Positions 4,987 to 50,205 of a stretch of 64,000 nt of DNA are shown one piece after another (positions within the stretch are counted from its first letter, which is position 1; every line of letters begins with the position of its first letter). The notes beneath the pieces were generated by a model. It was not told the origin of the DNA, made no database searches, and saw nothing but the letters and a program-made list of their open reading frames with translations. Position numbers and translations under genes: made by a program. Source of the stretch: Amycolatopsis thermoflava N1165 (lineage in GTDB: Bacteria > Actinomycetota > Actinomycetes > Mycobacteriales > Pseudonocardiaceae); NCBI RefSeq assembly GCF_000473265.1, contig NZ_KI421511.1:3571560-3635559 (forward strand). The letters run 5' to 3'.

Positions 4987-5033
4987 TCCCCTGCCGCACA
5001 ACGATTCCCTCCTCGGACGTGCCAAGCGCCAGA

Positions 5034-5075
5034 GAAGCCGGTCCCGGAGCGCGGACACGCTCCGGGACCGGCTTC
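5034..5075. terminator. Perfect 18-bp hairpin between convergent genes
   Basis: Left arm 5034-5051 and right arm 5058-5075 are perfectly complementary (GAAGCCGGTCCCGGAGCG and its complement) with a 6-base loop. It lies between the mycosin stop (4986) and the WXG100 stop (5089), so it probably ends transcription in both directions. Confidence 0.8.
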
Positions 5076-5088
5076 GGCGATGTCGGCT

Positions 5089-5376: not shown

Positions 5377-5406
5377 GTCTGTCCCCTTCCGAAGCTGCCG
5401 GCGCCG

Positions 5407-5757: not shown

Positions 5758-5905
5758 GCCTGATCACCCCCGTGTTGCGGACGTTTACCAGCAGAGTAGG
5801 CGCGGCGGCTGACATCCCCCCGTCGCCCCGTACCACCCTCGCATGGAGCAAAACCGCTGGTCAAGGCTTTCCGTCAGATCTTCACCGACGCCAGGTGCGG
5901 GCCGA

Positions 5906-7306: not shown

Positions 7307-7315
7307 GCCTATCCC

Positions 7316-8716: not shown

Positions 8717-8836
8717 GCTGCCCCTACCTCCAAATTGGACCCCGAGACCGGCTGGGAGAGTATCAATTAAAGCGCGACACTAGGCTGGCGGAAAGCTCTA
8801 TGCTGGCGCACCCGGGCGCTCGGGAGGTTTTCGGTC
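8717..8836. promoter_or_regulatory. Divergent control region between eccD and eccC
   Basis: 120 bp between two divergent core operons. It contains an AT-rich patch (TATCAATTAA at 8760-8769) that stands out against the surrounding GC, plus the RBS of eccC (GGGAGG, 8822-8827). The promoters for both core operons must lie here, but I cannot fix -10/-35 pairs with confidence. Confidence 0.45.
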
Positions 8837-11800
8837 TTGGGAACGATCATAGTCAAGCGGCCACTCCGGCGGCCCGCGCCTGACCTGCCATCAGGCGACG
8901 TGGTGCTCGACCCGCCACCGGAGAACCCGCCGCCCGCGGGCAAGAGCTGGTCGCGGGTGCTGATGATCCTGCCCATGCTCGCCGGCACCGGCGGCATGGC
9001 CCTGCTGATCGGCGCGGGGCGGTCCGGTCCGCTGATGTACGTCGCCGGTGGTCTCTACGGCGTCGCGGTGCTCGGCATGATCCTGTTCCAGATCATCAGC
9101 CAGGGCGGGCAGGGCGCGAGCAAGCAGGAGATGATCGCCAACCGCCGCCGGTACATGCGACGGCTCTCGCAGCTGCGCGCGCAGGTGCGGGACACGATCG
9201 ACCAGCAGCGCAAGGCGATGTTCTACCGCCACCCGGACCCGTCGCGGCTGTGGTCGACGGCCCAGAGCGCGCGCGTGTGGGAACGCCGTCCCGGCGACTG
9301 GGACTTCACGGTCATCCGGATCGGGCTCGGCTCGCAGGAGCTGGCCACGCCCCTGGTGCCGCCGGAGACCAAACCGATCGACGAGCTGGAACCGCTGTGC
9401 GCGATGGCCCTGCGGAAGTTCGTCACCACCTATTCGACGGTGCCGGACCTGCCGGTCGCGGTCGCGCTGCGCGGGTTCTCGCGCATCTACCTGACCGGCG
9501 ACGACGACCGCAAGCGCGCGATGGCGCGGGCGCTGGTCGCGCAGCTGGGCACCTTCCACGCCCCCGGCGACGTGCTGACCGCGTTCTGCGTGCGCGAGCG
9601 TGAGCTGTGGGACTGGGCCAAGTGGCTGCCGCACGCGCTGCACCCGACCAAGACCGACGCGGTCGGCCAGATCCGGCTCGTCGCGCCGAGCGTCACCGCT
9701 CTGGAGGCCATGCTCGACGACGTGCTCGCCAACCGGCCGCGCTTCAACCCGGGCACGCAGCCGATCGAGGGCTCCACGCACGTGGTGGTGTTCGTCGACG
9801 GCGGCGACACCGGCGGGTCCGAGCACCTGATGATCGAGGGCGGCGTCGAGGGTGTCACGGTCATCGACCTCTCCGGCGAGCCGCCGCGCCTGCTCGACTC
9901 GGCCACGCTGGTCCTCGACGTCTCGCCCGAAGGCAACCTCACCAGCCGCACCATGGACGGCGCGGGCAACATCGGCACCGCCGACGGCCTGGACGTCGAG
10001 GAGATGCGCGGTCTCGTGCGCACCCTCGCGCCGCTGCGGTTGTCCGCGCTGACCGCGAGCGAGCAGCCGCTGTCCGGTTCGCTGGAGCTGACCGACCTGC
10101 TCGGGCTGGGCGACCCGTACGAGTTCGACCTCGCGAAGAGCTGGGAGGCGCGGTCCAACCGGGACCGGCTGCGCGTCCCGATCGGCATCACCGCCGACGG
10201 CCGCCCGATGGAGCTGGACCTCAAGGAGTCCGCACAGGACGGCATGGGCCCGCACGGCCTGCTGGTCGGCGCCACCGGCTCCGGCAAGTCCGAGCTGTTG
10301 CGCACGCTCGTGCTGGCGCTGGCCGTCACGCACGATTCGGAGATCCTGAACTTCGTGCTGGTGGACTTCAAGGGTGGCGCCACGTTCACCAAGCTCGACC
10401 GGCTGCCGCACACCAGCGCGGTGATCACCAACCTGGCCGACGAGCTGCACCTGGTGGACCGCATGCTCGACGCGATCGGCGGCGAGCTGGTGCGCAGGCA
10501 GGAGCTGCTGCGCAAGGCGGGCAACTACGGTTCCCAGCGCGACTACGAGAAGGCCCGCACCGCCGGCGCCCCGCTCGACCCGCTGCCCGCGCTGCTGATC
10601 GTGGTCGACGAGTTCTCCGAGCTGCTGACCGCGCGGCCGGACTTCATCGACATGTTCGTCCAGATCGGACGCGTCGGCCGTTCGCTCGGTGTTCACCTGC
10701 TGCTCGCGTCGCAGCGGCTGGAGGAGGGCAGGCTGCGCGGGCTGGACTCGCACCTGTCCTACCGCATAGCGCTGCGGACGTTCTCCGCGATGGAGAGCCG
10801 GGTCGTGCTCGGCACGCCGGACGCGTTCCAGCTGCCCCGCTCCCCCGGCAACGGCTTCCTCAAGACCGGTGTCGACGAGCTGACCCGGTTCAAGGCCGCC
10901 TACGTCTCCGGCGTGCACCGGCGCGGCACGGTCCAGCACACCGACGACGAGGGCCGGCAGATCGACCCGGTGCAGGACTACTCGACGGCGTACCTGCGGC
11001 CCCGCCTGGCGGAGAAGCCGCTGGAGCAGCCGAAGCCCGCCGAGTCCGACGAGCTCGGCGAGACGCTGATGGACGTGCTGGTCGAGCGACTCGAAGGCAA
11101 GGGCGTGGCGGCGCACCAGGTGTGGCTGCCGCCGCTGGCCGAGCCGCCGTCGCTGGACAAGCTGCTCGAACCCCTGGTGCACGACCCCCAGCGCGGCCTC
11201 ACGACGGGCCAGACCGAGTACGTCGGGGCGCTGCGGGCCGCGGCCGGCGTCATCGACCGCCCGGCCGACCAGCGCCGCGACGTGTGCTGGCTCGACCTCT
11301 CCGGCGCGGGCGGCAACATCGCCGTCGTCGGTGGCCCGCAGAGCGGCAAGAGCACCGTGATCCGCACGATCATCGGCAGTCTCGCGCTCACCCACACCCC
11401 CGCGGAGGTGCAGTTCTTCTGCCTCGACTTCGGCGGCGGCGGCCTGACCGCGATGCGGGACCTCGCCCACGTCGGCGGGGTGGCCACCCGCCGGGAGGTG
11501 GACCGCGTGCGGCGCAGCATCGCCGAGGCGCGGACGCTGCTCGCCGAGCGGGAACAGCGGTTCTCCGAGCACGGCATCGACGGCATGGCGACCTACCGGA
11601 AGCAGTTGCGCGAGGGCAGGTTCCCCGAGGACCGCTTCGGCGACCTGTTCCTGGTGATCGACGGCTGGGGCACGATCCGCTCGGAGTTCGAGGACCTCGA
11701 ACCGGCGATCAACGAGCTGATCAACCGCGGGCTGGCGTTCGGCATCCACGTCGTCACGAGCTCGAACCGCTGGCTGGACCTGCGGATGAACGTCCGCGAC

Positions 11801-38504: not shown

Positions 38505-39078
38505 TCACCCCGACGGTCGACGGCTGGAGGAGCCGCACACCGTCAACGCGGCTGACGGTGGCGGCGTACATCCGGGCGATCGAGTGCGCGTCGGCGACCA
38601 TGTTCGCGGCCGGGAACTCCGCCGCACGCCAGGCGCGCGTGGTGAAGTAGCTGGTCGTGTTGTCGAAGGCGCCGCCGAGCTCGGGCGGTCACCCACGCGG
38701 TGACCGTGTCCGCGTGGCTACACTTCGAGCGCCCGGATGACCGGGTGCCAGGCGCACGCGTCCGCGAAGGTCAGCGGCCCGTCCAGGACCGGCAGGCCGG
38801 CCTGGTGGGACAGCAGCCATCGCACGGGGATCGTGTCCTTGCCGCGCGCGCCGAACTCCGGCCAGTACCGGACGACCGGCGCATCCAGGTCCAGCAGACC
38901 GCGCTGCACCAGCAGGTGCGCGCAAATCGCGGTGGCGCCCTTCGTCGTCGAGGCGACCTGCGCGATGGTGTTCGCGCGCCACGGCCGGTTCGCCTCGCGA
39001 TCGGCGAGGCCGTCCCAGAGGTTGACCACGAGGCGGCCGTCGACGTAGACGCTGCACGCCTGAGGTGGAAGCAGACAT
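38505..39078 (-). pseudogene. Scrambled beta-lactamase-family serine hydrolase
   Basis: Two pieces of one gene remain, both leftward. The upstream piece (about 38718-39056) has YVDGRLVVNLWDG, the S-x-x-K motif in VASTTKGA and PVRWLLSHQAGLPVLDG. The downstream piece (about 38505-38690) has GAFDNTTSYFTTRAWRAAEF and SIARMYAATVSRVDGVRLL, from the C-terminal part of the same family. A start with GGAGGAG sits at 39078, but the frame shifts near 39055; the region between the two pieces is deleted, and the 3' end runs into the MFS gene. No full-length product is possible. Confidence 0.8.
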
Positions 39079-39578
39079 GACACATCTCCTCCGTGTTCGT
39101 CACCACCGCCGGGCCGGTCCGCCTGGCGGAGGAGTGCGGCGGCCAGGAGTTCTGGGCCCGCCGGGTCGCAGTGGCGTGCTGCACCACCTGGGCGCCGTGC
39201 TGGAGGATCCGGTCCGCGGTCCCGAGGGCGACGAGCGTGGACAACCCCGCCGCGGCGTGGTTCGCGCACGTCGTGGGCGGATACACGATATCGGCGTGCT
39301 CATTTTCCGCGAACCGCAGAAAACCGGTCCGGCTCGCTATTTTTCGGACATTCATTCCGCGACCGTGCAACACGGCCAGAAACGGCAGTCCGCAATGGGA
39401 GTATTTCGCCAATACCGCCCTCGAAGTTCCCTGCCACAAAGCGAAATCGTGCGGTCCATACCGGACCGTCACCGGGAGCACGGGGGTGCGCACAGCGTTT
39501 TCTCAGGCGGTTCTCACCGGCCGCCCAGAAAGGGGGACGACCCTCGGCCGGGTCGTTCGCCGAACCGGAGGAGTGCAG
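39079..39578. other. Gene-poor, lower-GC stretch upstream of the sulfonate-type operon
   Basis: 500 bp. Counted by hand, 39301-39420 is 56 percent GC, well below its surroundings. A leftward open frame (39493 to about 39090) gives MRTPVLPVTVRYGPHDFAL and FAENEHADIVYPPTT, which do not look like a shadow of another gene but match no family I know. It may be a second gene remnant or an imported fragment. The last 20 bases contain the RBS of the ligase gene. Confidence 0.5.
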
Positions 39579-41048
39579 ATGGCCGTCGTTTCCCGGATGC
39601 TGGAGGTCCGCGCCCAGGACCGGCCGGACGAGGTGGCCTTCCTCGACGGCGCGGACGGGCGCGAGCTGACCTGGCGTTCGGTCGCGGCCGCCGCGCGGCG
39701 CTGGCGCGAACTCGCCAGGGACCTGCCGCCCCGCACCCGGATCGGTCTGGTGGCGGCCGATCCGCTGGCGTTCACCGCCGCCTACCTCGGCTGCCTCGCC
39801 GCGGGCCTGACCGCGGCGCCGGTCGACCCCCGCCTCACCACGGCCGAACTGGGCACCGCGCTCGACCGGGTGCGCGCCGCCGTCGTCGCGACCGACCGGC
39901 CGGACCTCGTCCCCGGCCGCCCGACCTGGGCACTCGACCGCGACGGGCCGCGCCCCGTCCGGACCGCTCGCATCCGTGCCGACGGCGCCGCGCTGCGGCC
40001 CGCGGTGCTGCTGACCAGTTCCGGCACCACCGGAGCGCCCAAGGGGATCCCGCTGAGCGAGTGGCAGCTCGTGCGCACCGCCCGCCGCGTCGCGCGGCAC
40101 CACCGGTTCGGCCCCGGCGAGCGCGGGTACACGCCGCTCCCCCTCTTCCACGTGAACGCGCAGGTGATGGGCCTGCTGGCGACGGTGATCAGCGGCGGCT
40201 CGCTGGTCCTCGACCGGAGGTTCAGCGCCGGCGATTACTGGGACCGCGTCGAACGCTGGTCGCCGACCTGGCTCAACACCGTCCCCGCGATCCTCGCCTC
40301 GCTCGCCCGGCGGCCCGCGCCGCCGGACCACGTCGCCCGCCGCATCCGGTTCGCGCGCTCGGCGTCGGCGCCGCTGTCACCGGAGATCGCGCGGCGCTTC
40401 ACCGAGCGAACCGGCGTCGGTGTGCTGGAGACCTACGGGATGTCCGAGGCCGCCGGGCAGATCACCGCGAACCCGCTCGACCCCTGGCTGCGCCGCGCCG
40501 GTTCGGTCGGTCTGCCCGTCGGGGTGGGGCTCGTCGTCGCCGGGCCGGACGGCGAGGTGCTGCCGCCCGGCGAACGCGGCGAGGTGCGGCTGCGCGGCCG
40601 CCAGGTCGTGAGCCGGTACCTGGAGCTGGACGGACTCGGCGAACGGAGTCGCCCGGCCCGGACGCCGGACGGGTGGCTGCGGACCGGTGACGTGGGCGTG
40701 CTCGACGAGCACGGGTACCTCACGCTCGCCGGGCGCGTGGACGACGTCATCAACCGCGGCGGCGAGAAGATCTACCCGCACGAGATCGAGGACGTCCTGC
40801 TCGCGCACCCGGCGGTCACCGCGGTCGCGGTCGTCGGCGCGCCGGACGAGCGTCTCGGCCAAGTGCCGGTCGCGTTCGTGACGGGACGGCCGGAACCCGG
40901 GCTGGCGCGGGCGTTGCACGGCTGGTGCGAACAGCGGCTGGCCCGCTACAAGCGGCCGTCGGTGATCGAGGTGACGGCGGCGCTGCCGCTCGGCCCGACC
41001 GGGAAGGTGCTGCGCCGTGAACTGCGGGCCGCGGCGGGCGGGCGGTGA
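39579..41048 (+). CDS. AMP-forming acyl-CoA/acid ligase (ANL superfamily)
   Basis: 489 residues. Core motifs: TSSGTTGAPKGIP (phosphate loop), ETYGMSEAAGQI, LRTGDVGVLDEHGYL and the GRVDDVINRGGEKI hinge; the C-terminal catalytic Lys is in LPLGPTGKVLRREL. It adenylates a carboxylic acid and passes it to CoA or another thiol. Nearest types are short-acyl, oxalyl or o-succinylbenzoate ligases. ATG 39579 has GGAGGAG five bases before. First gene of a six-gene run with 4-bp overlaps. The substrate could be sulfolactate or a fatty acid, which is inference. Confidence 0.88.
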   Translation: MAVVSRMLEVRAQDRPDEVAFLDGADGRELTWRSVAAAARRWRELARDLPPRTRIGLVAADPLAFTAAYLGCLAAGLTAAPVDPRLTTAELGTALDRVRAAVVATDRPDLVPGRPTWALDRDGPRPVRTARIRADGAALRPAVLLTSSGTTGAPKGIPLSEWQLVRTARRVARHHRFGPGERGYTPLPLFHVNAQVMGLLATVISGGSLVLDRRFSAGDYWDRVERWSPTWLNTVPAILASLARRPAPPDHVARRIRFARSASAPLSPEIARRFTERTGVGVLETYGMSEAAGQITANPLDPWLRRAGSVGLPVGVGLVVAGPDGEVLPPGERGEVRLRGRQVVSRYLELDGLGERSRPARTPDGWLRTGDVGVLDEHGYLTLAGRVDDVINRGGEKIYPHEIEDVLLAHPAVTAVAVVGAPDERLGQVPVAFVTGRPEPGLARALHGWCEQRLARYKRPSVIEVTAALPLGPTGKVLRRELRAAAGGR

Positions 41049-42166
41049 GCCGGCGCGGCGAGCACCTGCACTACGTCGACCTGGTGCGCGTCCTGACCGT
41101 CGGGCTGGTGATCGGCCTGCACGTGCTGGCGCTGGCGCCGTTCGCACCGGGGGTGCCGATCGGCGGACTGATCGTCGTCTTCCACGTCAGCCGCGAGGTG
41201 TTCTTCCTGCTGACCGCGTTCGTGCTCACCTACAGCACGGCGCGCAAGCCGCGGTGGCGCGAGTTCTGGCGACGGCGCTACCTGTTCGTCGTCGTGCCGT
41301 ATCTGCTGTGGACGGTCGTCTACTTCCTCGCGGACGGCGGGCCGTACTCGGCGGTGGCGTTCTTCAGCGAGCTGCTGACCGGGACCGCGCGCTACCACCT
41401 GTACTTCCTGCTGGTGTCGATGCAGATCTACCTGGTGTGGCCGGCGGTCCGGGGGCTGATCGCGGTGACCCGGCGGTACCACTGGGCGCTGCTGGCCTTC
41501 GCGGTGGCGTTCCAGCTGGTGTTCTCGCTCGCCGTGCAGCAGCAGTGGAACCTCGGCGGGTTGTCCGGGTGGGTGCACGCGCCGGACGCCTGGCTGCCCA
41601 GCTACCTCGGCTACGTGCTGGTCGGCGCGCTGGCCGGGACGCACCGGGAACGGCTTGTGGCGTGGACCCGCGCGCACGTGCGGGTGGTCCTCGGCGGGTG
41701 CGCGGCGGCGCTGGCGCTCGGCGTGGCTGTCTACTTAGGACAGGTCTACCTGGCCGGGCAACCGCCGCTGGTGGCGAGCATCGTGTTCCAGCCCGTCGTC
41801 GCGGTGGAGAGTTTCGCCGTGGCCTGGGCGTTCCTCGCCTTCGGTCTGGTGTGGACGGAGCGCGGGACGCCGTGGTGCGGCGTGGTCCGCGCGACCTCCG
41901 ACGCGTCGTTCGGCGTGTACCTGATCCACCCGCTGCTGCTGCAGGGCCTGCTCCTCGCGGTCGCCGCCGCCGGCCCCGCGCAGCCGCCGGACGCGGTGCT
42001 GCTGCCCGTGCTGGTGCTGGCGGTCGTCCCGCTCGTCTACTCCGTGTCCGGCCTGGTCACCGCACTGGCGCGGCGCACCCCGGCCAGCCTCGCCCTCACC
42101 GGGCGGGCCCGGGTGCGCGCACGCGTGCCCGCACCCGCCCTCGTCCCCACAGGAGGAACCCGATGA
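41045..42166 (+). CDS. Integral membrane acyltransferase (acyltransferase 3/OafA family)
   Basis: 373 residues with about ten transmembrane helices. The N-terminus LHYVDLVRVLTVGLVIGLHV carries the family's R...H arrangement in helix 1. These enzymes move acyl groups onto sugars, lipids or antibiotics at the membrane. GTG 41045 overlaps the ligase stop, so the two are made together. The C-terminus is a basic, disordered tail (RARVRARVPAPALVP). Probable acyl acceptor: the product of the ComA-like enzyme or a lipid carrier (inference). Confidence 0.85.
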   Translation: MSRRGEHLHYVDLVRVLTVGLVIGLHVLALAPFAPGVPIGGLIVVFHVSREVFFLLTAFVLTYSTARKPRWREFWRRRYLFVVVPYLLWTVVYFLADGGPYSAVAFFSELLTGTARYHLYFLLVSMQIYLVWPAVRGLIAVTRRYHWALLAFAVAFQLVFSLAVQQQWNLGGLSGWVHAPDAWLPSYLGYVLVGALAGTHRERLVAWTRAHVRVVLGGCAAALALGVAVYLGQVYLAGQPPLVASIVFQPVVAVESFAVAWAFLAFGLVWTERGTPWCGVVRATSDASFGVYLIHPLLLQGLLLAVAAAGPAQPPDAVLLPVLVLAVVPLVYSVSGLVTALARRTPASLALTGRARVRARVPAPALVPTGGTR

Positions 42167-42906
42167 ACACCGGTGTGACCATGGTGATCGACCCCGGTCT
42201 GCCGACCGGTGCGTTCACCGACCTGGTGACCAGCCACGGCGACCACATCGACCTGCTCAAGTTCGGCTGGGGCACCGCACTGGTGACCAGGGACCTGCAC
42301 CGCAAGGTCGCCGTGCTGCGCGAAGCCGGGATCGGCTGCTACTTCGGCGGCACGCTGTTCGAGCACTACCTGGTGCGCGACCGGCTGGACGACTGCCTCG
42401 CGTTCGTCGACGACGCCGGCGCCACGCACATCGAGGTGTCCAACGGAACGATCCCGTTGTCGCAGCACGACAAGGCGCCCTACGTCGAGCGGATGACCCG
42501 GTACCGGCCGGTGCTCGCCGAGGTCGGCTACAAGGACGCGGGCCGTTCGGCGTGCCTCGGGCCGGCGGACTGGGTCGGCGCGATCACCGAGGACCTCGCG
42601 GCCGGCGCGGACTTCGTGATCACCGAGACGCGCGAGAGCGGCCGCAGCGGCCTGGCCCGGCCGGACGGGCACGTGCGCGAGGACGTGCTGCACGCGGTGA
42701 TTTCCGCGGTCGACCACCGGCGCCTGCTGTTCGAGGCGCCGACCAAGGAGCTGCAGGTCGAACTGATCCAGGCGCTCGGGCCGTCGGTGAACCTCGGCAA
42801 CATCGCCACCACCGACGTGCTCGGCGTGGAAACCCTGCGGCGCGGGCTGCGCGCCGACACCCTCGTCCAGCTCACCCCGACCCTGAAGGGAACCGTCCAT
42901 GCGTGA
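42163..42906 (+). CDS. Phosphosulfolactate synthase-like protein (ComA family)
   Basis: 247 residues, full-length ComA TIM barrel: TMVIDPGLPTGAF, HIDLLKFGWGT, IEVSNGTIPL, the Lys in AEVGYKDAG (Lys124, matching the catalytic Lys region), FVITETRESGRSG and EAPTKELQVELIQALGP. ComA adds sulfite to phosphoenolpyruvate to give 2-phospho-3-sulfolactate, the first step of coenzyme M in methanogens and of sulfolactate in Bacillus spores. ATG 42163 overlaps the acyltransferase stop and has AGGAGG upstream. No ComB phosphatase gene is present; a histidine phosphatase lies two genes on. Confidence 0.88.
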   Translation: MNTGVTMVIDPGLPTGAFTDLVTSHGDHIDLLKFGWGTALVTRDLHRKVAVLREAGIGCYFGGTLFEHYLVRDRLDDCLAFVDDAGATHIEVSNGTIPLSQHDKAPYVERMTRYRPVLAEVGYKDAGRSACLGPADWVGAITEDLAAGADFVITETRESGRSGLARPDGHVREDVLHAVISAVDHRRLLFEAPTKELQVELIQALGPSVNLGNIATTDVLGVETLRRGLRADTLVQLTPTLKGTVHA

Positions 42907-43298
42907 CCCTCGCGATGCCTGCCACGTTGCCATCCCGGCCCGCGACCTCGACGAGGCCGTCGAGTTCTACGTGTTCGGCCTCGGCGCGAAGCTGGCCCCG
43001 CCGCTACGACGACCGTGTGACGTTCGACTTCTTCGGCGACCAGCTCGTGTGCCATCTGTCGGAGAACGTGCCCGCGGAGGCGGTGGCCTACCCGCGGCAC
43101 TTCGGTGTGAGCTTCGCGCGGGCCGAGGACTTCGACCGGCTGGTGCGGGTCGTCGAGCACCGGAAGCTGACGGTGCTGTCCGGGCCGTCGCTGCGGTTCG
43201 AGGGGACGGCCGAGCAGCACCGGACGTTGTTCCTGGTGGATCCATCGAACAACGTGCTGGAGTTCAAGAACTACGACGACCCGCGGTTGCAGTACTGA
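42899..43298 (+). pseudogene. VOC-superfamily protein, frameshifted
   Basis: The N-terminus (CHVAIPARDLDEAVEFYV) and the remainder (YDDRVTFDFFGDQLVCHL ... LFLVDPSNNVLEFKNYDD) are a single small VOC protein of about 132 residues, but they lie in different frames. The break is at the four-C run 42996-42999: one C fewer restores GCC-CGC-CGC-TAC and full homology. Because a homopolymer is involved, this may be a sequencing error, a real inactivation or a slippage site. VOC domains use a metal on lactoyl, dioxygen or epoxide chemistry. The start overlaps the ComA-like stop; the end overlaps the phosphatase start (TGATG). Confidence 0.85.
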
Positions 43299-43840
43299 TG
43301 GCCGTGCACCTGGTACGGCACGGGCAGAGCGCGTGGAACGTCGCCGGCCGTGTGCAGGGGCAGTCGCCGCGGGCGGGTTCGCTGACCGCGGCGGGGCGGG
43401 CGCAGGCGGCCGCGCTGGACGTGACCGGGACGGTGCTCGTGTCGAGCGATCTGCCCAGGGCGCGGGAGACGGCGGAGATCATCGCGGCCCGGCTGGGGTT
43501 GCCGGTGCTGGTCGACGCCGGATTGCGGGAGCAGCGGCTCGGCGCGCTGGAGGGCAGGCGGTTCGCCGAGGTGCAGCCGGTGATCGACGGCCTGTGGGCG
43601 CACCCGCTGCGGCTGCCGCCCGGTGGCGGGGAGAGCGTGGCCGACCTGCACCTGAGGGTGCGGCGGACGCTGGGCAGGCTGGCGGCGCGGCACGCCGGGG
43701 AGGAGCTGGTCGTGGTGACGCACGGCGGCCCGATCCGCGTGGCGACGACCGGGGTGGACCCGGTGTCGGGGTCCGCGGTGCCGCGGGTGGCGGTCGGGAA
43801 TGCGGCGGTGATCACTGTGCGTCCGGGCGCGGCCGTCTAG
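43298..43840 (+). CDS. Histidine phosphatase superfamily protein
   Basis: 180 residues. RHGQSAWN at the start (phospho-His), SSDLPRARETAEI, GLREQRLGALEGRRF and VTHGGPIR at the end complete the phosphoglycerate-mutase-like active site. The enzyme could remove the phosphate left by the ComA-like step, the job done by unrelated ComB in methanogens; that is an inference from position. Start shares one base with the VOC stop. Confidence 0.9.
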   Translation: MAVHLVRHGQSAWNVAGRVQGQSPRAGSLTAAGRAQAAALDVTGTVLVSSDLPRARETAEIIAARLGLPVLVDAGLREQRLGALEGRRFAEVQPVIDGLWAHPLRLPPGGGESVADLHLRVRRTLGRLAARHAGEELVVVTHGGPIRVATTGVDPVSGSAVPRVAVGNAAVITVRPGAAV

Positions 43841-43851
43841 TCTGCGGCCTT

Positions 43852-44622
43852 GTGACTGTGCGCCTGGATCTCGAGCCCACCGGACTGGCCGTGCTGACGA
43901 TCGATGCCGGGCCGCTCAACCTGTACACGCTCGAGCTGCACGCGGACTTCGACGCCGCGCTGGACCGCCTCGGGGATGCGCGGGCGCTGCTGATCCGTGC
44001 CGAGGGCAAGATCGTCAGCGGCGGGGTCGACGTGTCGCTGTTCGCCGCGCAGGAGACACCCGGGCAGGCGAAGGAGCTGTTCGACCGGATGCTGGCGCTG
44101 CCGGACCGGATCGCGGCGCTGGAGATCCCGACGGTGTTCGCGGCGCACGGGTTGTGCCTGACGTGGGCTTTTGAGGTCGCGGTGGCGTGCGACCTGATCC
44201 TCGCGGCGGAGCGGGCGTCGTTCGGCCTGGTCGAGAAGGTCGTCGGCCTGACCCCGACGATGGGCGGCACGCAGCGCCTGGCCGCGCGGGCCGGCGTCGG
44301 GCGGGCCGCGGAATTCGTGATGACGGGCGACCGCTACCCGGCGGCCGAGCTGGCGCGGTGGGGCGTGGTGAACCGGGTGCTGCCGGACGCCGGGTTCGAC
44401 GAGGCCGCCCGGTCCTTCGCGGCATCGCTGGCGGAGGGCCCGACGCGCGCCCACGCGGCGACGAAGAAGGTGCTGTCGCACTTCGCGAACGGCGGCGTCG
44501 CCGAGGCGAACAAGCACATCACGTCGCTCGCGGCGGACCTGTACCGCACGGAAGACCTGCGCAACGCGGTGCGGTCTTTCCTGGCGGAGGGGCCAGGGAA
44601 GGCGAAGTTCACCGGCCGCTGA
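43852..44622 (+). CDS. Crotonase-family protein, last gene of the ComA-like operon
   Basis: 256 residues. The crotonase fold is clear (GKIVSGGVDVSLFA, HGLCLTWAFEVAVACDLILA, GLTPTMGGTQRLAARAG). The first oxyanion segment is normal, but the second, AHGLCLTWAFEVA, has Leu-Thr-Trp where G-G-G is usual, so the CoA chemistry may be unusual. GTG 43852 is 11 bp after the phosphatase gene. It probably acts on the CoA ester formed by the ligase. Confidence 0.85.
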   Translation: MTVRLDLEPTGLAVLTIDAGPLNLYTLELHADFDAALDRLGDARALLIRAEGKIVSGGVDVSLFAAQETPGQAKELFDRMLALPDRIAALEIPTVFAAHGLCLTWAFEVAVACDLILAAERASFGLVEKVVGLTPTMGGTQRLAARAGVGRAAEFVMTGDRYPAAELARWGVVNRVLPDAGFDEAARSFAASLAEGPTRAHAATKKVLSHFANGGVAEANKHITSLAADLYRTEDLRNAVRSFLAEGPGKAKFTGR

Positions 44623-44694: not shown

Positions 44695-45078
44695 GTGATC
44701 GAGTTCCGGATCGACCGGCGCAGCGGCGTGGCCACGTACCTGCAGTTGGTGCAGCAGGTCGAACAGGCGTTGCGGCTCGGCCGGCTCCAGCCGGGCGACC
44801 GGTTGCCCACCGCCAAGGAGGTGGTGAGCAGCATCGCGATCAACCCGAACACGGTGCTCAAGGCGTACCGCGAACTCGAACGCGAAGGCCTCGTCGAGGC
44901 GCGGCGCGGGCTCGGCACCTTCGTCCGGCGTTCGCTCGGGCACGGCGACGCGGTGGACGGCGCCCTGCTGCGCCAGAAGCTGGAGAGCTGGATCCGGGAG
45001 TCGCGCGCGGCGGGGCTGGAGCGGGAGGACGTCGAAGCGCTGGTCAAGTCGGTACTCGACGAACACCACTGGACGTGA
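44695..45078 (+). CDS. GntR-family (YtrA subfamily) transcriptional regulator
   Basis: 127 residues: winged helix (about 10-75, YLQLVQQVEQALRLGRLQPG, AINPNTVLKAYRELEREGLV, ARRGLGTFV) and a short C-terminal tail with no ligand domain, as in YtrA. YtrA regulators repress ABC transporters encoded with them. GTG 44695 is placed four bases after the perfect palindromic operator. First gene of a three-gene operon. Confidence 0.92.
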   Translation: MIEFRIDRRSGVATYLQLVQQVEQALRLGRLQPGDRLPTAKEVVSSIAINPNTVLKAYRELEREGLVEARRGLGTFVRRSLGHGDAVDGALLRQKLESWIRESRAAGLEREDVEALVKSVLDEHHWT

Positions 45079-45088
45079 AGGAGGGGGC

Positions 45089-45967
45089 ATGGCGAGCAGC
45101 GACGCGTTGACGGCGACCGGTCTCGGCAAGCGGTATCGCCGGGGCTGGGCGCTGCGGGACTGCGACTTTTCCGTGCCACACGGCCGGATCAGCGCGCTGG
45201 TCGGCCCCAACGGCGCGGGCAAGACGACGTTGATGGCGCTGGCGACCGGCCTGCTCGAACCAACCGAGGGGCAGGTGCGGGTGATGGGTCGCGTGCCGGA
45301 CAGGCGGGGGATTCCCGCGGACCTGGCGTTCCTCGCCCAGGACAAGCCGTTGTACCGCGGGTTCACGGTGGCGGACATGCTGCGTGCGGGCCGGGCGCTC
45401 AACACCACGTGGGACCAGGCCTACGCGGAGCGGCTCCTCTCCGAGGCGGGTGTCCCGCGCGCCGCGCGCATCGGGACCTTGTCGGGGGGCCAGCGCACGC
45501 GGGTGGCGCTCGCGATGGCTCTGGGCCGGCGTCCGCGCGTGCTCATGCTCGACGAGCCGCTCGCGGATCTGGACCCGATCGCCCGGGACGAGGTCATGCG
45601 GACGCTGATGGCCGAAGCAGCCGACACCGGGATGACCGTGCTGCTCTCCTCGCACGTGCTGTCGGACCTCGAAAACGTGTGCGATCACCTGCTGCTGCTC
45701 GCCGACGGGCGGACGCGGCTGTGCGGCGACGTGGCGGACCTGCTCGCCGGGCACCGGCTTCTGGTCGGCCCCGCGGACGGTGACCTCGCCCCGGACACGG
45801 TGGTCGAGCGGCGCAAGACGGCACGGCAGGTCACGGCCCTGGTACGGGGACGCGGGCCGGCGCCCGCTCCCGGCTGGGAATCACACGAACCCACGTTGGA
45901 GGAACTGGTGATGGCGCACCTGCGGGCGGGCAGCGCCGCGGCACCCGCGCGGGAGGTGGCCGCGTGA
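45089..45967 (+). CDS. ABC transporter ATP-binding protein
   Basis: 292 residues. Walker A GPNGAGKTT, signature LSGGQRTR, Walker B VLMLDEPLADLDP and H-loop SSHVLSD are all intact. The type matches the YtrB/BcrA group used for antibiotic or lipid export. Follows the GntR gene by 10 bp (RBS AAGGAGG) and overlaps the permease gene by 4 bp. Confidence 0.93.
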   Translation: MASSDALTATGLGKRYRRGWALRDCDFSVPHGRISALVGPNGAGKTTLMALATGLLEPTEGQVRVMGRVPDRRGIPADLAFLAQDKPLYRGFTVADMLRAGRALNTTWDQAYAERLLSEAGVPRAARIGTLSGGQRTRVALAMALGRRPRVLMLDEPLADLDPIARDEVMRTLMAEAADTGMTVLLSSHVLSDLENVCDHLLLLADGRTRLCGDVADLLAGHRLLVGPADGDLAPDTVVERRKTARQVTALVRGRGPAPAPGWESHEPTLEELVMAHLRAGSAAAPAREVAA

Positions 45968-46902
45968 CCTGGGTGACCTGGCGGCTGCACCGCCTGCAGC
46001 TGCTGCTCGGTCTCGGACTGACCGCGGCCGTCGCGGTGGTGCTGGTCGTCGAGCACGTGCAGGCGACCGGTTACCTGGCGGCCCACGGCATCGAGGGGTG
46101 CCAGGTGGTCGACAGTGGACGGTGCACCGCCCCGGCGATGGCGGCGTTCGAGGACGAGTTCCAGAGCTTCGCGCGCAACTTCCCGATGGTGCTTCTCGGC
46201 CTCCCCGTGCTGCTCGGCATGTTCACCGGCGCTCCGCTGTTCGCGCGCGAATTCGAGCAGGGGACCCACATCCTCGGGCTGACGCAGTCGGTGAGCCGGT
46301 TCCGTTGGTGGCTGAGCAAGCTGCTCGTGGTGGGTACGCCGATCCTCCTCGGCATGTTCGCGCTTGGCTTGGTGAGCGCCTGGGCGTTCGAACCGCTGCA
46401 CTACGTGACTCGCGGTGCGATCATGACACCGGGCTTCGAGACGCAGGGGCCGGTCCTGGGCGCCTACACCGTGCTCGCGTTCGCCGTCGGCGCGACGGCG
46501 GGGCTGTTCTTCCGCAACACGCTCGCCGCGATGGCGGCGACACTGCTCGTCTACCTGGTGGTCGTGGTCGGGGTCGCGAACCTGGCCAGGCCGGGCTTCG
46601 CCGAGCCCGCCCAGGCCACGGCCTCCGTCGCCGCGACGAACCCCGTCCCGTACGACGCCTGGCGGCTCGGGGCGGCGTACTACGACGCGAGCGGCCACGA
46701 GGTCGCGTTCGAACCGTCCGCCTGCACGTCCGCCGACACCGCGCGGAGTTGCCTGGAGAACCAGGGGGTGGCGGCGCAGCGGGCCGCGTTCCACCCCGCC
46801 GACCGGTTCTGGCGATTCCAGGGGATCGAGAGCGGGATCCACGTGGTGCTGGGCGGTCTGGTCCTGGCGGCCGGCTTGTGGCGGGTGCGGCGGGTGCTGT
46901 GA
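45964..46902 (+). CDS. ABC transporter permease
   Basis: 312 residues with about six transmembrane helices. Extracellular loops carry cysteines (EGCQVVDSGRCTAP and SACTSADTARSCLEN) that may be disulphide-bonded. The pattern fits ABC-2 type permeases of the BcrB/YtrC group. GTG 45964 overlaps the ATPase stop. Ends 50 bp before the convergent fahA stop, with a pair of overlapping hairpins in between. Confidence 0.9.
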   Translation: MTWVTWRLHRLQLLLGLGLTAAVAVVLVVEHVQATGYLAAHGIEGCQVVDSGRCTAPAMAAFEDEFQSFARNFPMVLLGLPVLLGMFTGAPLFAREFEQGTHILGLTQSVSRFRWWLSKLLVVGTPILLGMFALGLVSAWAFEPLHYVTRGAIMTPGFETQGPVLGAYTVLAFAVGATAGLFFRNTLAAMAATLLVYLVVVVGVANLARPGFAEPAQATASVAATNPVPYDAWRLGAAYYDASGHEVAFEPSACTSADTARSCLENQGVAAQRAAFHPADRFWRFQGIESGIHVVLGGLVLAAGLWRVRRVL

Positions 46903-46907
46903 CAGTG

Positions 46908-46961
46908 CGGGCTCCGGCCAAGCGCTGACGCGCCAGGCCGGAGCCCGGCGCGTCAGCGCTT
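46908..46961. terminator. Two overlapping, mutually exclusive hairpins between convergent genes
   Basis: Hairpin A: arms 46908-46919 and 46936-46947 (CGGGCTCCGGCC, 12 bp perfect). Hairpin B: arms 46920-46934 and 46947-46961 (AAGCGCTGACGCGCC, 15 bp perfect). The right arm of B includes the last codons and stop of fahA. The arms are interleaved, so only one hairpin can form at a time. Bidirectional termination is the simplest role. Confidence 0.75.
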
Positions 46962-48134
46962 GGCTTCGGTGGCCGGCAGGATCCGCCCCCGCACCTCGCC
47001 GAAACCGATGCGGCCTGCCGATCCCGGGGCGGTCGCCGTGATCGCCACCTCGTCGCCGTCCAGGAGGAACGTTCGCGGCTCGCCGTTGACCTCGACCGGC
47101 TCCTTGCCGCCCCAGGTCAGCTCGATGAACGCGCCGCGCTGGTTCTTCTCCGGGCCGGAGATCGTGCCGGACGCGTACAGGTCGCCCGTGCGCGACGACG
47201 CCCCGTTGACCGTCATGTGCGCCAGCATCTGCGCCGGCGACCAGTACATCTCCCGGTACGGCGGGCGGCTGACCTCCTGCCCGTTCCACGACACCGACAA
47301 CGCGATGTCCAGCCCCCACGGCGACGACTCCCGCAGGTACGGCAACGGCTCCGGCGACTGCTCCGGCGTCGGGACCCGCGCGGCCTCCAGCGCCAGCAGC
47401 GGCACCACCCACGGCGAGATCGACGTCGCGAAGCTCTTGCCGAGGTTCGGGCCCAGCGGGACGTATTCCCAGGCCTGGATGTCCCGCGCCGACCAGTCGT
47501 TCACCAGCACCGCGCCGAACACGTGCCGCGCGAAGTCCTCCGTCCGGACACCCGAACCGAGCGGCGACGGGACGCCGACGATGAACCCCAGCTCCGCCTC
47601 GATGTCCAGCCGCCGCGACTCGCCGAACGACGGCGCGTCCTCGTCCGGCGCCTTGCGCTGCCCGCACGGCCGCACGATGTCCGTGCCGGACACCACGATC
47701 GTCCCGGCCCGCCCGTGGTAGCCCACCGGCAGGTGCTTCCAGTTCGGCATCAGCGGCTCGGCGTCCGGCCGGAACAGCCGCCCCAGGTTGGCCGCGTGGT
47801 GCTCGGACGCGTAGAAGTCCACGTAGTCCGCGACCTCGACGGGCAGGTGCAGCTCCACTTCGGACACCGGGAAGACCGCCTCGGCGGGCACCTCACCCCG
47901 CACGAGCTCCGAGATACGCGCCCGCACCTCTACCCACCGGTCGTAGCCCTGCGCCATGAACGCGTTCAACGACGGCCGCGCGAACACGTCGTCGCCCAGC
48001 GCCACCGCCAGGTCGACCACGGAATCGCCCACCCGCACGCCGACCCGCGGCTGCGTCCCCGGCGTGGAGAACACGCCGTAGGGCAGGTTGTCCAGCCCGA
48101 ACAGCGACCCCTCGGGGATGTCGATCGTGGTCAC
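46953..48134 (-). CDS. fahA: Fumarylacetoacetase
   Basis: 393 residues, full length. The N-terminal SH3-like domain (about 1-115) is followed by the catalytic domain with DYVDFYASEHHAANLGRLFR (metal and His), YHGRAGTIVV, VLVNDWSARDIQAWEYVPLG and GGKEPVE. It splits fumarylacetoacetate into fumarate and acetoacetate, the last step of homogentisate breakdown. The start overlaps the stop of the preceding unknown gene (ATGA). Third gene of the operon hmgA-unknown-fahA. Confidence 0.95.
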   Translation of the reverse strand: MTTIDIPEGSLFGLDNLPYGVFSTPGTQPRVGVRVGDSVVDLAVALGDDVFARPSLNAFMAQGYDRWVEVRARISELVRGEVPAEAVFPVSEVELHLPVEVADYVDFYASEHHAANLGRLFRPDAEPLMPNWKHLPVGYHGRAGTIVVSGTDIVRPCGQRKAPDEDAPSFGESRRLDIEAELGFIVGVPSPLGSGVRTEDFARHVFGAVLVNDWSARDIQAWEYVPLGPNLGKSFATSISPWVVPLLALEAARVPTPEQSPEPLPYLRESSPWGLDIALSVSWNGQEVSRPPYREMYWSPAQMLAHMTVNGASSRTGDLYASGTISGPEKNQRGAFIELTWGGKEPVEVNGEPRTFLLDGDEVAITATAPGSAGRIGFGEVRGRILPATEAKR

Positions 48135-48955
48135 GCCGTCACTCCTCCTTCCAGCGCCGAAGCCGGGACCAGTCCGAGGTCCACCAGTTCGGCCACCGGT
48201 TCGTCGATGCTGCAGGTCCCGAACGACCGGAACGACTCACGCGCCGCAGGGTCCACTTCGGACACCAGCTCGGCCACCCGCGCGCCGTCCCGCTCCGCGA
48301 GCAACGCGACGAGCTCGTCCTCGCCCGCGCCGGAGCGGGCCGCCGCCGTCGCCAGCAGCAGGTTCAGGAACCCGTGCTGCTCGAACCCGGTGGACGGGTC
48401 CGTGTTCCGCACCGCGTGGTGCAGCCCGGCGGTCGCCTTGAACGGCACCCCCGCCCGCACCACGGCGTGCACGGCCGCGGCCAGCTCCGCCTCGTCCGGG
48501 TACAGCTCGGCTTTCACCCCGCCGGTCCGGAACTTCGCGGCGTGCCCGGTCTTCGCGCAGGTCGCGATCACCTCGGCCCGGCGGGGGTCCCGTGGCACCT
48601 CGACGAACACCGGCACGTCACCGGCCACCTCCAGCGCGCGGAAGAACTCCGGCACCGACGACTCCGCGGGCACCGCGACCTCGAACCCGGCCAGCCGCAC
48701 CGGCAGGTCGGCGGCCCGGCCCAGAGCGTCCGGCAGCTGGGCCGGGCCGCCCGGCGCGGTCACCGACAGATCGAGCGGCTCGGCAGCGACCGCGCCGAGC
48801 TCCGCGAGCGCCGGCGCGGCCAGGACCAGCGGGCCGACCAGTTCGCCGTAGCCCGACGCGAGGTGCGTGGCGTGGTCCGGCACTGCCTGCGGCAGGGGCT
48901 TCAGACCGGGCGGGAACACCGCCGCGTCGTCGAGGAAGCCGGCGAACACACTCAC
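48131..48955 (-). CDS. Unknown protein coupled to hmgA and fahA, 274 aa
   Basis: GTG 48955 overlaps the hmgA stop and the stop overlaps the fahA start, so translation is coupled on both sides. VSVFAGFLDDAAVFPPGLKPL starts a predicted alpha/beta protein with KFRTGGVKAELYPDEAELAA and HAVRNTDPSTGFEQHGFLNLL as the conserved-looking parts. The pattern recalls a barrel fold. There is no signal peptide or transmembrane segment. Maleylacetoacetate isomerase, the missing enzyme between HmgA and FahA, is usually glutathione-dependent, but actinobacteria lack glutathione, so this gene is a candidate for that step. That is inference; no known isomerase motif was recognised. Confidence 0.8.
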   Translation of the reverse strand: MSVFAGFLDDAAVFPPGLKPLPQAVPDHATHLASGYGELVGPLVLAAPALAELGAVAAEPLDLSVTAPGGPAQLPDALGRAADLPVRLAGFEVAVPAESSVPEFFRALEVAGDVPVFVEVPRDPRRAEVIATCAKTGHAAKFRTGGVKAELYPDEAELAAAVHAVVRAGVPFKATAGLHHAVRNTDPSTGFEQHGFLNLLLATAAARSGAGEDELVALLAERDGARVAELVSEVDPAARESFRSFGTCSIDEPVAELVDLGLVPASALEGGVTA

Positions 48956-50142
48956 TTCGGCCCCCGCCCGGCCCAGGTCCACGCGTAGTTCGGGTCCTCG
49001 GCCGCGCGGCCGCCCTCACCCAGCTCCAGCGGGCGGAACGTGTCGACCATGACCGCCAGCTCGTCGAAGAACTCCACGCCGATGCTGCGCTCGTAGGCGC
49101 CCGGCTGCGGGCCGTGCGAGTGGCCGCCCGGGTGCAGCGAGATCGAGCCCTGCCCGATGCCCGAGCCCTTGCGCGCCTCGTAGTCGCCGCCGCAGTAGAA
49201 CATGACCTCGTCCGAGTCCACATTGGAGTGGTAGTACGGCACCGGGATGGACAGCGGGTGGTAGTCCACCTTGCGCGGCACGAAGTTGCAGACGACGAAG
49301 TTGTCGCCCTCGAACACCTGGTGCACCGGCGGCGGCTGGTGCACGCGGCCGGTGATCGGCTCGAAGTCGCTGACGTTGAACGTGTACGGGTAGAGGCAGC
49401 CGTCCCAGCCGACCACGTCGAACGGGTGCTGCGGGTACACGAACCGGGTGCCGACGATCCCGGTGCTGCCGCGGTGCTTGATCAGCACCTCGACGTCGGT
49501 GCCCTCGACCAGCAGCGGCTCGGTGGGCCCGTGCAGGTCGCGCTCGCAGTACGGCGCGTGCTCCAGCAGCTGGCCGTACTTCGACAGGTACCGCTTCGGC
49601 GGCGTGATGTGCGAGTTCGCCTCGATCGCGTACGCCCGCACCGGGCCGTCCGGCACCCAGCGGTGGGTGGTGGCGCGCGGCAGGATCACGTAGTCGCCCT
49701 GGCGGAACGGCAGCACGCCGAACACGGTCTCGACGACGCCCTCACCGGACTCGATGTAGACGCACTCGTCGCCGATCGAGTTGCGGTACAGCGGGGAGGC
49801 CTCGCCCGCCACGACGTAGGAGATGCGCACGTCGCCGTTGCCGAGCACGAGCCGGCGCCCGGTGACGACGTCGTTGGACTTCCACTCCTCGCCCGGGAAC
49901 AGCTCGTGCAGCTTGAGGTGCCGCGGCCGGAGCGGGTGGTTGGCCTCGGTGGTCAGGTCCGGGAGCTCCCAGACCGTCGAGTCGACGATCGCCGACGGGA
50001 TGTTGCGGTGGTAGAGCAGCGACGAATCGCTGGAGAAGCCCTCCTCCCCCATCAGCTCCTCGTAGTACAGGCCACCCTCGGGGGTGCGGTGCTGCGTGTG
50101 CCGCTTCGGCGGAACCGCACCGACCTGCCGGTAGTACGCCAT
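48952..50142 (-). CDS. hmgA: Homogentisate 1,2-dioxygenase
   Basis: 396 residues, double-stranded beta-helix (cupin) protein. YYEELMGEEGFSSDSSLLYH near the N-terminus, HQVFEGDNFVVCNFVPRK, PYYHSNVDSDEVMFYCGGDY and SLHPGGHSHGPQPGAYE contain the iron-binding His/Glu residues of the family. It opens the ring of homogentisate, the central intermediate of tyrosine breakdown. ATG 50142 was chosen for the AAGGAGG upstream; a longer frame to 50202 would cross a palindromic operator. First gene of the operon, controlled from 50168-50187. Confidence 0.95.
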   Translation of the reverse strand: MAYYRQVGAVPPKRHTQHRTPEGGLYYEELMGEEGFSSDSSLLYHRNIPSAIVDSTVWELPDLTTEANHPLRPRHLKLHELFPGEEWKSNDVVTGRRLVLGNGDVRISYVVAGEASPLYRNSIGDECVYIESGEGVVETVFGVLPFRQGDYVILPRATTHRWVPDGPVRAYAIEANSHITPPKRYLSKYGQLLEHAPYCERDLHGPTEPLLVEGTDVEVLIKHRGSTGIVGTRFVYPQHPFDVVGWDGCLYPYTFNVSDFEPITGRVHQPPPVHQVFEGDNFVVCNFVPRKVDYHPLSIPVPYYHSNVDSDEVMFYCGGDYEARKGSGIGQGSISLHPGGHSHGPQPGAYERSIGVEFFDELAVMVDTFRPLELGEGGRAAEDPNYAWTWAGRGPK

Positions 50143-50167
50143 GACCTCGCCTCCTTGCCGGTCCGAT

Positions 50168-50187
50168 GTAGTAAATGTATGTACTAC
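50168..50187. promoter_or_regulatory. MarR operator upstream of hmgA
   Basis: GTAGTA (50168-50173), 8-base spacer, TACTAC (50182-50187), a perfect dyad in an AT-rich island 26 bp before the hmgA start. A second site of the same form lies at 50756-50775 ahead of the MarR gene. Confidence 0.8.
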
Positions 50188-50205
50188 TTCGCTCGTGCGC
50201 AAGGG

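What the first reader, a model, noticed from the sequence alone, without database searches (positions are those of the whole stretch)
39579..44622. Candidate sulfonate-metabolite operon built around a ComA-like phosphosulfolactate synthase
Six co-directional genes, mostly overlapping by 1-8 bp: AMP-forming ligase, membrane acyltransferase, ComA-like synthase with its Lys124, VOC protein, histidine phosphatase and an atypical crotonase. ComA chemistry would make phosphosulfolactate, the phosphatase could give sulfolactate, and the ligase and acyltransferase could activate and attach it. No coenzyme M genes (comB-E) or methanogen context are present. I know no described pathway with this set.
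Basis: partly seen in the sequence, partly recalled or inferred. Interest (0 to 1): 0.8.

Follow-up and report, generated by a model that had tools for sequence, protein, structure and literature searches.

The report
Sulfolactate-ester pathway of soil actinobacteria
A set of genes that travels together in many soil actinobacteria, built around a relative of the enzyme that joins sulfite to phosphoenolpyruvate, likely makes the sulfonate sulfolactate and is predicted to attach it as an ester to something outside the cell; no described pathway with this set turned up in the literature searches made here.

Summary
The observation largely holds and proves more interesting than stated. Window 39579-43840 carries ligase, AT3 membrane acyltransferase, ComA, VOC protein and histidine phosphatase, overlapping by 1-8 bp. 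They form a cassette found across Actinomycetota. Of the 80 named loci nearest in ComA (best of 376), 77 have the VOC gene directly downstream, 70 the ligase, 63 the AT3, 45 the phosphatase. In a class-wide sample (23 ComA genomes besides the window's) 7 have the VOC; 6 of those 7 also have ligase and AT3; 0 of the 16 without VOC have any partner. Arrangements vary, and four loci fuse partners into one ORF. The phosphatase and secreted ester-hydrolase slots are filled by unrelated families.

Most likely pathway: PEP + sulfite -> phosphosulfolactate -> sulfolactate -> sulfolactyl-CoA -> ester outside the membrane, cleaved or transferred by the secreted hydrolase. All chemistry is inferred.

The VOC role and the ester acceptor are unknown.

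The parts
39077..39427 (-). eroded remnant of the conserved secreted CE1/PHB-depolymerase-like esterase (two pieces; the stretch with the nucleophile motif is gone)
   Evidence: tblastn of the A. tucumanensis (L053) esterase and blastn blocks show several deletions; a divergent esterase gene lies here in 13 of 25 relatives' loci
39579..41048 (+). AMP-forming acyl-CoA ligase, nearest solved relatives oxalate-CoA ligases
   Evidence: PF00501 + PF13193; best PDB hits 6qjz, 8aff, 5ie0; present in 70 of 80 named ComA loci
41045..42166 (+). AT3 (Acyl_transf_3) membrane acyltransferase
   Evidence: PF01757; R15 and H26 of the R-X10-H motif invariant in 59 of 59 aligned; 63 of 80 loci
42163..42906 (+). 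ComA-like (2R)-phospho-3-sulfolactate synthase
   Evidence: PF02679 242 bits; 1u83 E 6e-59; the only PF02679 match in the genome
42899..43298 (+). VOC-fold protein gene, frameshifted by one base at about 42998-43001
   Evidence: two frames; intact orthologues in relatives; solved relative 3rri, E 3e-47 to the A. tucumanensis orthologue
43298..43840 (+). histidine phosphatase, proposed phosphosulfolactate phosphatase
   Evidence: PF00300; relatives of it beside 45 of 80 ComA loci, either strand
43852..44622 (+). crotonase-family protein; adjacent but not part of the conserved cassette
   Evidence: PF00378; 1 of 80 named loci

Best explanation
This is a conserved actinobacterial gene cassette that likely makes (R)-3-sulfolactate from phosphoenolpyruvate and sulfite, and is predicted to activate it and pass it across the membrane into an ester on an acceptor outside the cell. 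Shown by comparison: in this branch of ComA the VOC gene follows ComA in 77 of 80 named loci; ligase and AT3 acyltransferase are present in most; a phosphatase and a secreted ester hydrolase are frequent, and unrelated families serve in those places. Inferred steps: ComA makes 2-phospho-3-sulfolactate; the histidine phosphatase (ComB or a HAD protein elsewhere) removes the phosphate; the ligase forms sulfolactyl-CoA; the AT3 protein moves the sulfolactyl group to a hydroxyl outside, most likely of an envelope or extracellular glycan; the secreted hydrolase removes it or completes the transfer. The VOC protein would act with ComA or the phosphatase on a small sulfonate by an unknown, probably metal-dependent, step. 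In the window's own strain the VOC frameshift and the eroded esterase suggest that the cassette may be failing.
For: Class-wide ComA sample: 7 of 23 non-own genomes have the VOC, 6 of those 7 also ligase + AT3; 0 of 16 without the VOC have any partner within 6 kb. All 5 non-own VOC genomes of a 396-genome phylum sample have ComA-VOC-ligase-AT3 together. VOC orthologues (160 bits or more; next best 84) occur in 20 of 150 relatives (own included), 19 of them with ComA; the 4 ComA genomes without VOC share coenzyme-M neighbours. 62 of 80 loci have VOC+ligase+AT3, in 30 arrangements with at least six orders of the core genes alone. One-ORF fusions: AT3-ligase (L080, L106), ligase-ComA (L107, L129). 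Beside ComA-VOC stand HisP (45 of 80), ComB (L110) or a HAD hydrolase (L104). Secreted hydrolases of two folds, CE1-like and GDSL. ComA groups with B. subtilis 1u83 apart from the coenzyme-M ComAs (100/99). AT3 proteins pass acyl-CoA-derived groups, succinyl included, to outside acceptors (PMC9833829, PMC9558356, passages).
Against: No enzyme was assayed. G012 keeps esterase, ligase, AT3 and VOC but has lost ComA, so the rest may have another use. Kutzneria (L064, L065, L071) lacks a linked AT3; 16 of 40 full-flank core loci lack a linked HisP and 12 lack a linked hydrolase. ComB and HAD were each seen in one locus only, so their place there could be chance. The ligase label does not form one clade on the ComA tree: at least 6 gains or losses. 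The ligase's acid is unknown: the AAE3 residue recalled as oxalate-binding His319 is Ser or Gly in all 55 aligned. The second AT3 motif (RXXR) is not kept. The GDSL proteins look most like extracellular lipases, which also suits a lipid ester. The VOC role is unknown. In this strain two of the genes are broken.
Confidence: 0.48

Rival explanations
1. Sulfolactate is the acyl acceptor: the ligase activates another acid (fatty or short), the AT3 protein esterifies the hydroxyl of sulfolactate, and an O-acyl-sulfolactate surfactant or sulfonolipid is exported and later cleaved by the secreted lipase-like hydrolase.
For: The ligase's nearest NCBIfam model is the FadD7-type fatty-acid-CoA ligase (296 bits, far below the cut-off of 650); GDSL partners resemble Streptomyces extracellular lipase and phospholipase A1; CE1-like partners also resemble PHB depolymerases.
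Against: No fatty-acid gene was recognised in the cassette; the nearest solved ligases act on oxalate, a very small diacid; the CE1-like partner is nearest to acetyl-xylan and feruloyl esterases, which act on acylated glycans.
Confidence: 0.22
2. The end product is free sulfolactate or a close derivative (compatible solute, sulfite sink or sporulation solute as in Bacillus); ligase and AT3 serve an unrelated surface acylation that merely travels with it.
For: Seven of 51 full-flank loci have ComA-VOC without ligase; of these L063 and L068 have HisP, L104 a HAD hydrolase, L110 ComB and MFS transporters; G012 shows the rest without ComA.
Against: Ligase-ComA fusions, and ligase in 70 of 80 loci through many arrangements; 6 of 7 in the class sample.
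Confidence: 0.15
3. The cassette makes a small diffusible sulfonated natural product, with the AT3 protein acylating it and the secreted hydrolase activating or detoxifying it.
For: Stand-alone AT3 proteins acylate macrolide antibiotics in Streptomyces (PMC9833829 and PMC9558356, passages); patchy distribution across genera.
Against: No further gene family recurs in most loci: the next commonest neighbour cluster, a short-chain-dehydrogenase-like one, is in 14 loci. Not every neighbour was annotated.
Confidence: 0.1
4. The ComA homologue has changed its reaction and makes no sulfonate.
For: It misses the archaeal ComA equivalog cut-off (218 of 280 bits); positions 159 and 195 vary among cassette-type ComAs.
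Against: It groups with B. subtilis 1u83; 24 of 26 inspected positions are invariant or nearly so in 71 sequences; a Bacillota locus pairs the same ComA-VOC with ComB, the phosphosulfolactate phosphatase family.
Confidence: 0.05

Closest known systems
Bacillus ComA/ComB sulfolactate synthesis (YitD/YitC; names and role recalled)
   Same: ComA of the same branch (1u83 inside the same well-supported group); a phosphatase follows; L110 has ComB beside ComA-VOC.
   Different: Cassette adds VOC, ligase, AT3 and secreted hydrolase; the linked phosphatase is usually of the histidine type.
Bacterial coenzyme M pathway (Xcb)
   Same: Starts with a ComA homologue (recalled); such loci occur in the same family, and G004 and G020 have both kinds.
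   Different: The six such loci have none of the cassette partners; their ComAs form a separate clade (100/97). In L033 the XcbA match passes its cut-off; XcbC, D and E matches stay below theirs.
Methanogen coenzyme M pathway (ComA-E)
   Same: ComA family and conserved residues.
   Different: No linked comB or comC relative; archaeal ComA equivalog cut-off missed.
AT3-based surface acylation (OafB, OatA, IcaC, OpgC)
   Same: AT3 protein with R-X10-H, plus in many loci a secreted SGNH or other ester hydrolase that could complete or reverse the transfer.
   Different: Acyl group proposed here is a sulfonate supplied by a dedicated synthase and ligase; the hydrolase is a separate protein.
Oxalyl-CoA synthetases (AAE3/Pcs60)
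   Same: Closest solved relatives of the ligase.
   Different: Two aligned positions differ in all 55 cassette ligases (AAE3 His216 to Asn, His319 to Ser/Gly; AAE3 numbers counted by hand on the alignment).

Membership tests
Phosphosulfolactate synthase (ComA) | PF02679 over curated cut-off | tested here: met
   242.4 bits, cut-off 25.2
Phosphosulfolactate synthase (ComA) | residues conserved between the M. jannaschii and B. subtilis proteins | tested here: met
   26 positions inspected, all kept in the window's protein; in 71 aligned ComAs 159 and 195 vary; which of them are catalytic is recalled
Phosphosulfolactate synthase (ComA) | PEP + sulfite to phosphosulfolactate | not testable with these tools
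   needs enzyme assay
Archaeal ComA equivalog (TIGR03849) | score over cut-off 280 bits | tested here: not met
   218.2 bits
Coenzyme M biosynthesis (com or Xcb) | linked comB, comC or xcbD relatives | tested here: not met
   genome searches gave one PF04029, two PF02615 and XcbD-like proteins (best 294.7 of 600 bits), none inside the window
Coenzyme M biosynthesis (com or Xcb) | comD/E or xcbA/C/E relatives in the genome | not tested
   no genome-wide search was run for these
AT3 acyltransferase | PF01757 and R-X10-H motif | tested here: met
   R15 and H26 invariant in 59 of 59 aligned
AT3 acyltransferase | RXXR motif on helix 3 | tested here: not met
   any RXXR in residues 61-130 in 12 of 59; a single Arg78 invariant
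Oxalyl-CoA synthetase | oxalate-binding residues (His214, Ser289, His319 of AAE3; recalled) | tested here: not met
   first two kept in 55 of 55, the third in 0 of 55
CE1/PHB-depolymerase-like secreted esterase | esterase fold with nucleophile Ser motif and catalytic His | tested here: met
   in relatives only: G164, S166, D213, H280 invariant in 20 aligned; AlphaFold pLDDT 85.8, Foldseek to acetyl xylan/feruloyl esterases; hydrophobic N-terminus by eye; in the window the gene is eroded
Fos-type fosfomycin-modifying VOC enzymes | NCBIfam Fos family cut-offs | tested here: not met
   best 27.8 of 295 bits, on a relative's intact VOC
Phosphosulfolactate phosphatase activity of the histidine phosphatase | dephosphorylation of phosphosulfolactate | not testable with these tools
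   inferred from its place, taken by ComB in L110 and a HAD protein in L104

The most novel reading that the evidence does not exclude
These bacteria coat an extracellular or envelope glycan with O-linked sulfolactyl esters, a sulfonate decoration with its own de novo synthesis, activation, trans-membrane transfer and secreted eraser, which would keep the surface negatively charged even in acid soils where carboxylate groups lose their charge.
Probability: 0.28. Interest if true: 0.9.

Novelty: new variant of a known kind. Interest (0 to 1): 0.7.

Why it matters
It would be a third fate for ComA chemistry besides coenzyme M and Bacillus sulfolactate, present across Actinomycetota. It would give a genetic handle on biogenic C3 sulfonates in soil, point to a function for a VOC family that already has a solved structure (3rri), and predict a sulfonated ester on bacterial surfaces or secretions that the searched literature listings do not mention.

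Tried and rejected
Chance neighbourhood: rejected, since partners persist through many arrangements and fusions while 0 of 16 VOC-less ComA loci of the class sample have any; 5 of those 16 contigs end within 4 kb of ComA on one side. Coenzyme M: rejected for the window's locus, with comD/E and xcbA/C/E not searched genome-wide. Crotonase as a pathway member: rejected. GntR/ABC genes 44698-46902 and the tyrosine-degradation genes after them: same order only in close relatives. CitMHS/ArsB-like permease, ClC-like channel and other neighbours in Acidimicrobiaceae loci: confined to one lineage, not interpreted. VOC as a fosfomycin enzyme: only weak similarity. Sequence search of the GDSL alignment against the PDB found nothing; a fold search did. 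A paper search for 3RRI with glyoxalase and Alicyclobacillus found none; one for oxalyl-CoA synthetase structures gave four listings that I did not open; sulfolactyl-type terms gave six listings, none on an ester decoration judging by titles and abstract starts.

Limits: the 80 named loci are the best of 376 by similarity to this ComA, so they favour relatives; the profiles used to count partners were built from those same loci. Alignment counts (71 ComA, 59 AT3, 55 ligases) include the window's protein twice. Some of the 30 arrangements differ only through contig ends or missing accessory genes. Gene calls were made by my own simple caller; counts come from six-frame profile searches. AAE3 residue roles, Lys124 as catalytic, VOC metal-ligand analogy, Xcb order and Yit names are recalled.
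Full report
WHAT IS IN THE WINDOW. The six reported genes are at 39579-44622 on the + strand, overlapping by 4, 4, 8 and 1 bp, then an 11-bp gap before the crotonase. Families: AMP-binding ligase, Acyl_transf_3, ComA, VOC/glyoxalase superfamily (read from an intact relative), histidine phosphatase, enoyl-CoA hydratase/isomerase. ComA is the only PF02679 match in the 8.69 Mb genome. The closest named relative found is Amycolatopsis tucumanensis, 95% identical in ComA.

The VOC gene is split by a one-base frameshift at about 42998-43001; relatives have intact copies. Each half still shows dN/dS near 0.03 against A. tucumanensis, while ComA shows 0.23, ligase 0.15, phosphatase 0.16, crotonase 0.08 and AT3 0.46; so the shift is recent or an assembly error. 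Upstream, 39077-39427 minus holds two pieces of a secreted esterase whose middle, with the nucleophile motif, is gone; further deletions mark this strip. A close relative, G014, has ComA and the phosphatase in broken frames, AT3 in two pieces and no ligase found by tblastn. The cassette therefore looks to be decaying in part of this lineage, if those assemblies are right.

THE CASSETTE. I fetched the surroundings of the ComA genes found in 150 relatives (25 loci besides the window's own) and the 80 best of 376 confirmed loci from a scan of GTDB species. Clustering of neighbours and profile searches gave, within 6 kb of ComA in the 80: VOC 77 (all directly downstream, same strand), ligase 70, AT3 63, histidine phosphatase 45, CE1-like esterase 27, two GDSL families 13 and 6 (any secreted hydrolase 45), crotonase 1. 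In the 51 loci with at least 5.5 kb on both sides: VOC 50, ligase 44, AT3 41, phosphatase 29, hydrolase 29; VOC+ligase+AT3 40, of which 28 have a hydrolase and 24 a histidine phosphatase. Of the three loci without VOC (L089, L096, L103), L096 ends at a contig edge; a genome with a contig of the same length, G094, carries VOC-ligase-AT3-esterase at the start of another contig (L135). The 62 loci with VOC+ligase+AT3 show 30 arrangements, some differing only by accessory genes or contig ends, with at least six orders of the core genes alone. AT3 and ligase are one ORF in L080 and L106; ligase and ComA are one ORF in L107 and L129.

SAMPLES DRAWN BY TAXONOMY. Of 394 class genomes, 24 have ComA. 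I fetched all 23 other than the window's: 7 have VOC next to ComA, 6 of these also ligase and AT3, the seventh (L174) two histidine phosphatases; the other 16 have no partner. Nine of the 28 contigs fetched end within 4 kb of ComA on one side, 5 of them among the 16. In a 396-genome phylum sample, 6 genomes have the VOC orthologue; all 6 have ComA, and the 5 besides the window's have ComA-VOC-ligase-AT3 together; 38 of the 396 have some ComA. In 150 relatives (own included), VOC orthologues at 160 bits or more occur in 20 genomes with a clear gap to the next (84 bits); 19 of these have ComA, and 4 ComA genomes lack the VOC. Those four (G053, G054, G087, G108) are among six loci with coenzyme-M-type neighbours: in L033 NCBIfam matched XcbA over its cut-off and XcbC, D and E below theirs, and the other five share one to four of those four gene clusters. 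The six loci have no hit to any cassette partner. The exception on the other side is G012: esterase, ligase, AT3 and VOC in order, with 43 bp between the matched ends of AT3 and VOC and no ComA.

PLACES TAKEN BY UNRELATED FAMILIES. Beside ComA-VOC stands a histidine phosphatase in 45 of 80 loci; ComB (PF04029, E 3e-36) in a Bacillota MAG (L110); a HAD hydrolase in Humibacter (L104). The last two are single observations. The secreted hydrolase is CE1/PHB-depolymerase-like, with a lipobox-like motif by eye in several Amycolatopsis, or GDSL/SGNH. AlphaFold models: esterase pLDDT 85.8, nearest solved folds acetyl xylan esterase B, feruloyl esterases and PHB depolymerase; GDSL pLDDT 77.5, nearest Streptomyces rimosus extracellular lipase at modest similarity. 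Different enzymes of one class in the same place argue that dephosphorylation and ester cleavage or transfer are real steps.

COMA, LIGASE, AT3, VOC. The ComA tree (90 rows) puts the 80 named ComAs, the window's and B. subtilis 1u83 in one group (100/99), coenzyme-M ComAs in another (100/97), with M. jannaschii outside; loci with a linked ligase do not form one clade (8 changes, at least 6 forced by well-supported branches), so the ligase has been gained or lost repeatedly or missed in some loci. Of 26 conserved positions inspected, 22 are invariant and 2 nearly so in 71 aligned ComAs; 159 and 195 vary. The ligase is nearest to oxalate-CoA ligases among solved structures, but two aligned positions differ in all 55, so its acid is small by analogy yet not oxalate by that test. 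All 59 aligned AT3 proteins keep R-X10-H; RXXR is not kept (motifs from passages of PMC9833829). The review PMC9558356 (passages) asks whether AT3-only proteins need a partner protein; here a secreted hydrolase is a candidate. The VOC family has a solved member, 3rri (E 3e-47), and invariant H9, H52, H67 and E121 in 37 of 37, plausible metal ligands by analogy with VOC enzymes (recalled).

BEST READING. PEP + sulfite -> phosphosulfolactate (ComA) -> sulfolactate (phosphatase) -> sulfolactyl-CoA (ligase) -> O-sulfolactyl ester outside (AT3) -> cleaved or moved on by the secreted hydrolase. The ligase needs a carboxylic acid, and sulfolactate is the only one the cassette is predicted to supply; that is the reason to prefer sulfolactate as donor. 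Gene association is shown; every reaction is inferred. The VOC step, the acceptor, and whether sulfolactate is donor or acceptor are open. Several hosts have acid-habitat names or sources (Amycolatopsis acididurans and acidicola, Pseudonocardia acidicola, Acidiferrimicrobium, bog and palsa MAGs), which fits a charge-retaining sulfonate, though A. alkalitolerans is also among them and no test was made.

LITERATURE. Full-text searches for phosphosulfolactate synthase (31 papers), sulfolactate with Amycolatopsis (2), sulfolactate with actinobacteria and biosynthesis (21, 15 listed), sulfolactyl-type terms (6) and coenzyme M with Xanthobacter and phosphosulfolactate (2) showed no title or abstract start describing this set (listings). 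PMC10562698 (passages) notes comA in Alicyclobacillus without this context. Subscription journals are mostly not covered.

Noticed in passing
L134 (G012) 4776-8806: A same-genus genome keeps esterase, ligase, AT3 and VOC but lacks ComA between AT3 and VOC, and has no PF02679 match elsewhere.
   Followed up: partly
L052 (G014) 7774-11195: A close relative's cassette shows broken frames in ComA and the phosphatase, AT3 in two pieces and no ligase; either decay or a low-quality assembly.
   Followed up: no
L028, L030, L033-L036: Coenzyme-M (Xcb-type) neighbourhoods in the same family and order; two of these genomes (G004, same genus, and G020) also have the cassette.
   Followed up: partly
L051 (G015) 9803-10669: A very divergent ComA homologue (branch length over 4) with no cassette partner nearby, in a genome that also has the cassette.
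   Followed up: no
L121, L130, L132: Cassette loci in MAGs labelled Proteobacteria, Saccharibacteria and Acidobacteria; the last two sit inside Acidimicrobiaceae in the ComA tree, so those labels may be wrong; L121 sits near Bacillota.
   Followed up: no
window 38510-39097: Next to the esterase remnant a second gene, intact in A. tucumanensis (L053 3043-4389 minus), is also eroded; its pieces read like a serine beta-lactamase/esterase-family protein (recalled).
   Followed up: partly
window 46953-50202: Homogentisate/fumarylacetoacetate degradation genes (recognised by eye) lie on the minus strand beside the cassette, also in close relatives.
   Followed up: no
G000 C1:3955072-3955488: An unlinked ComB-family (PF04029) protein, 53 bits, 340 kb from the cassette.
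   Followed up: no
L092, L094, L097, L101, L118, L122, L124-L126: Acidimicrobiaceae-type loci place a CitMHS/ArsB-like permease and a ClC-like channel (the latter by eye) around the cassette; possible anion exporters or plain synteny.
   Followed up: no
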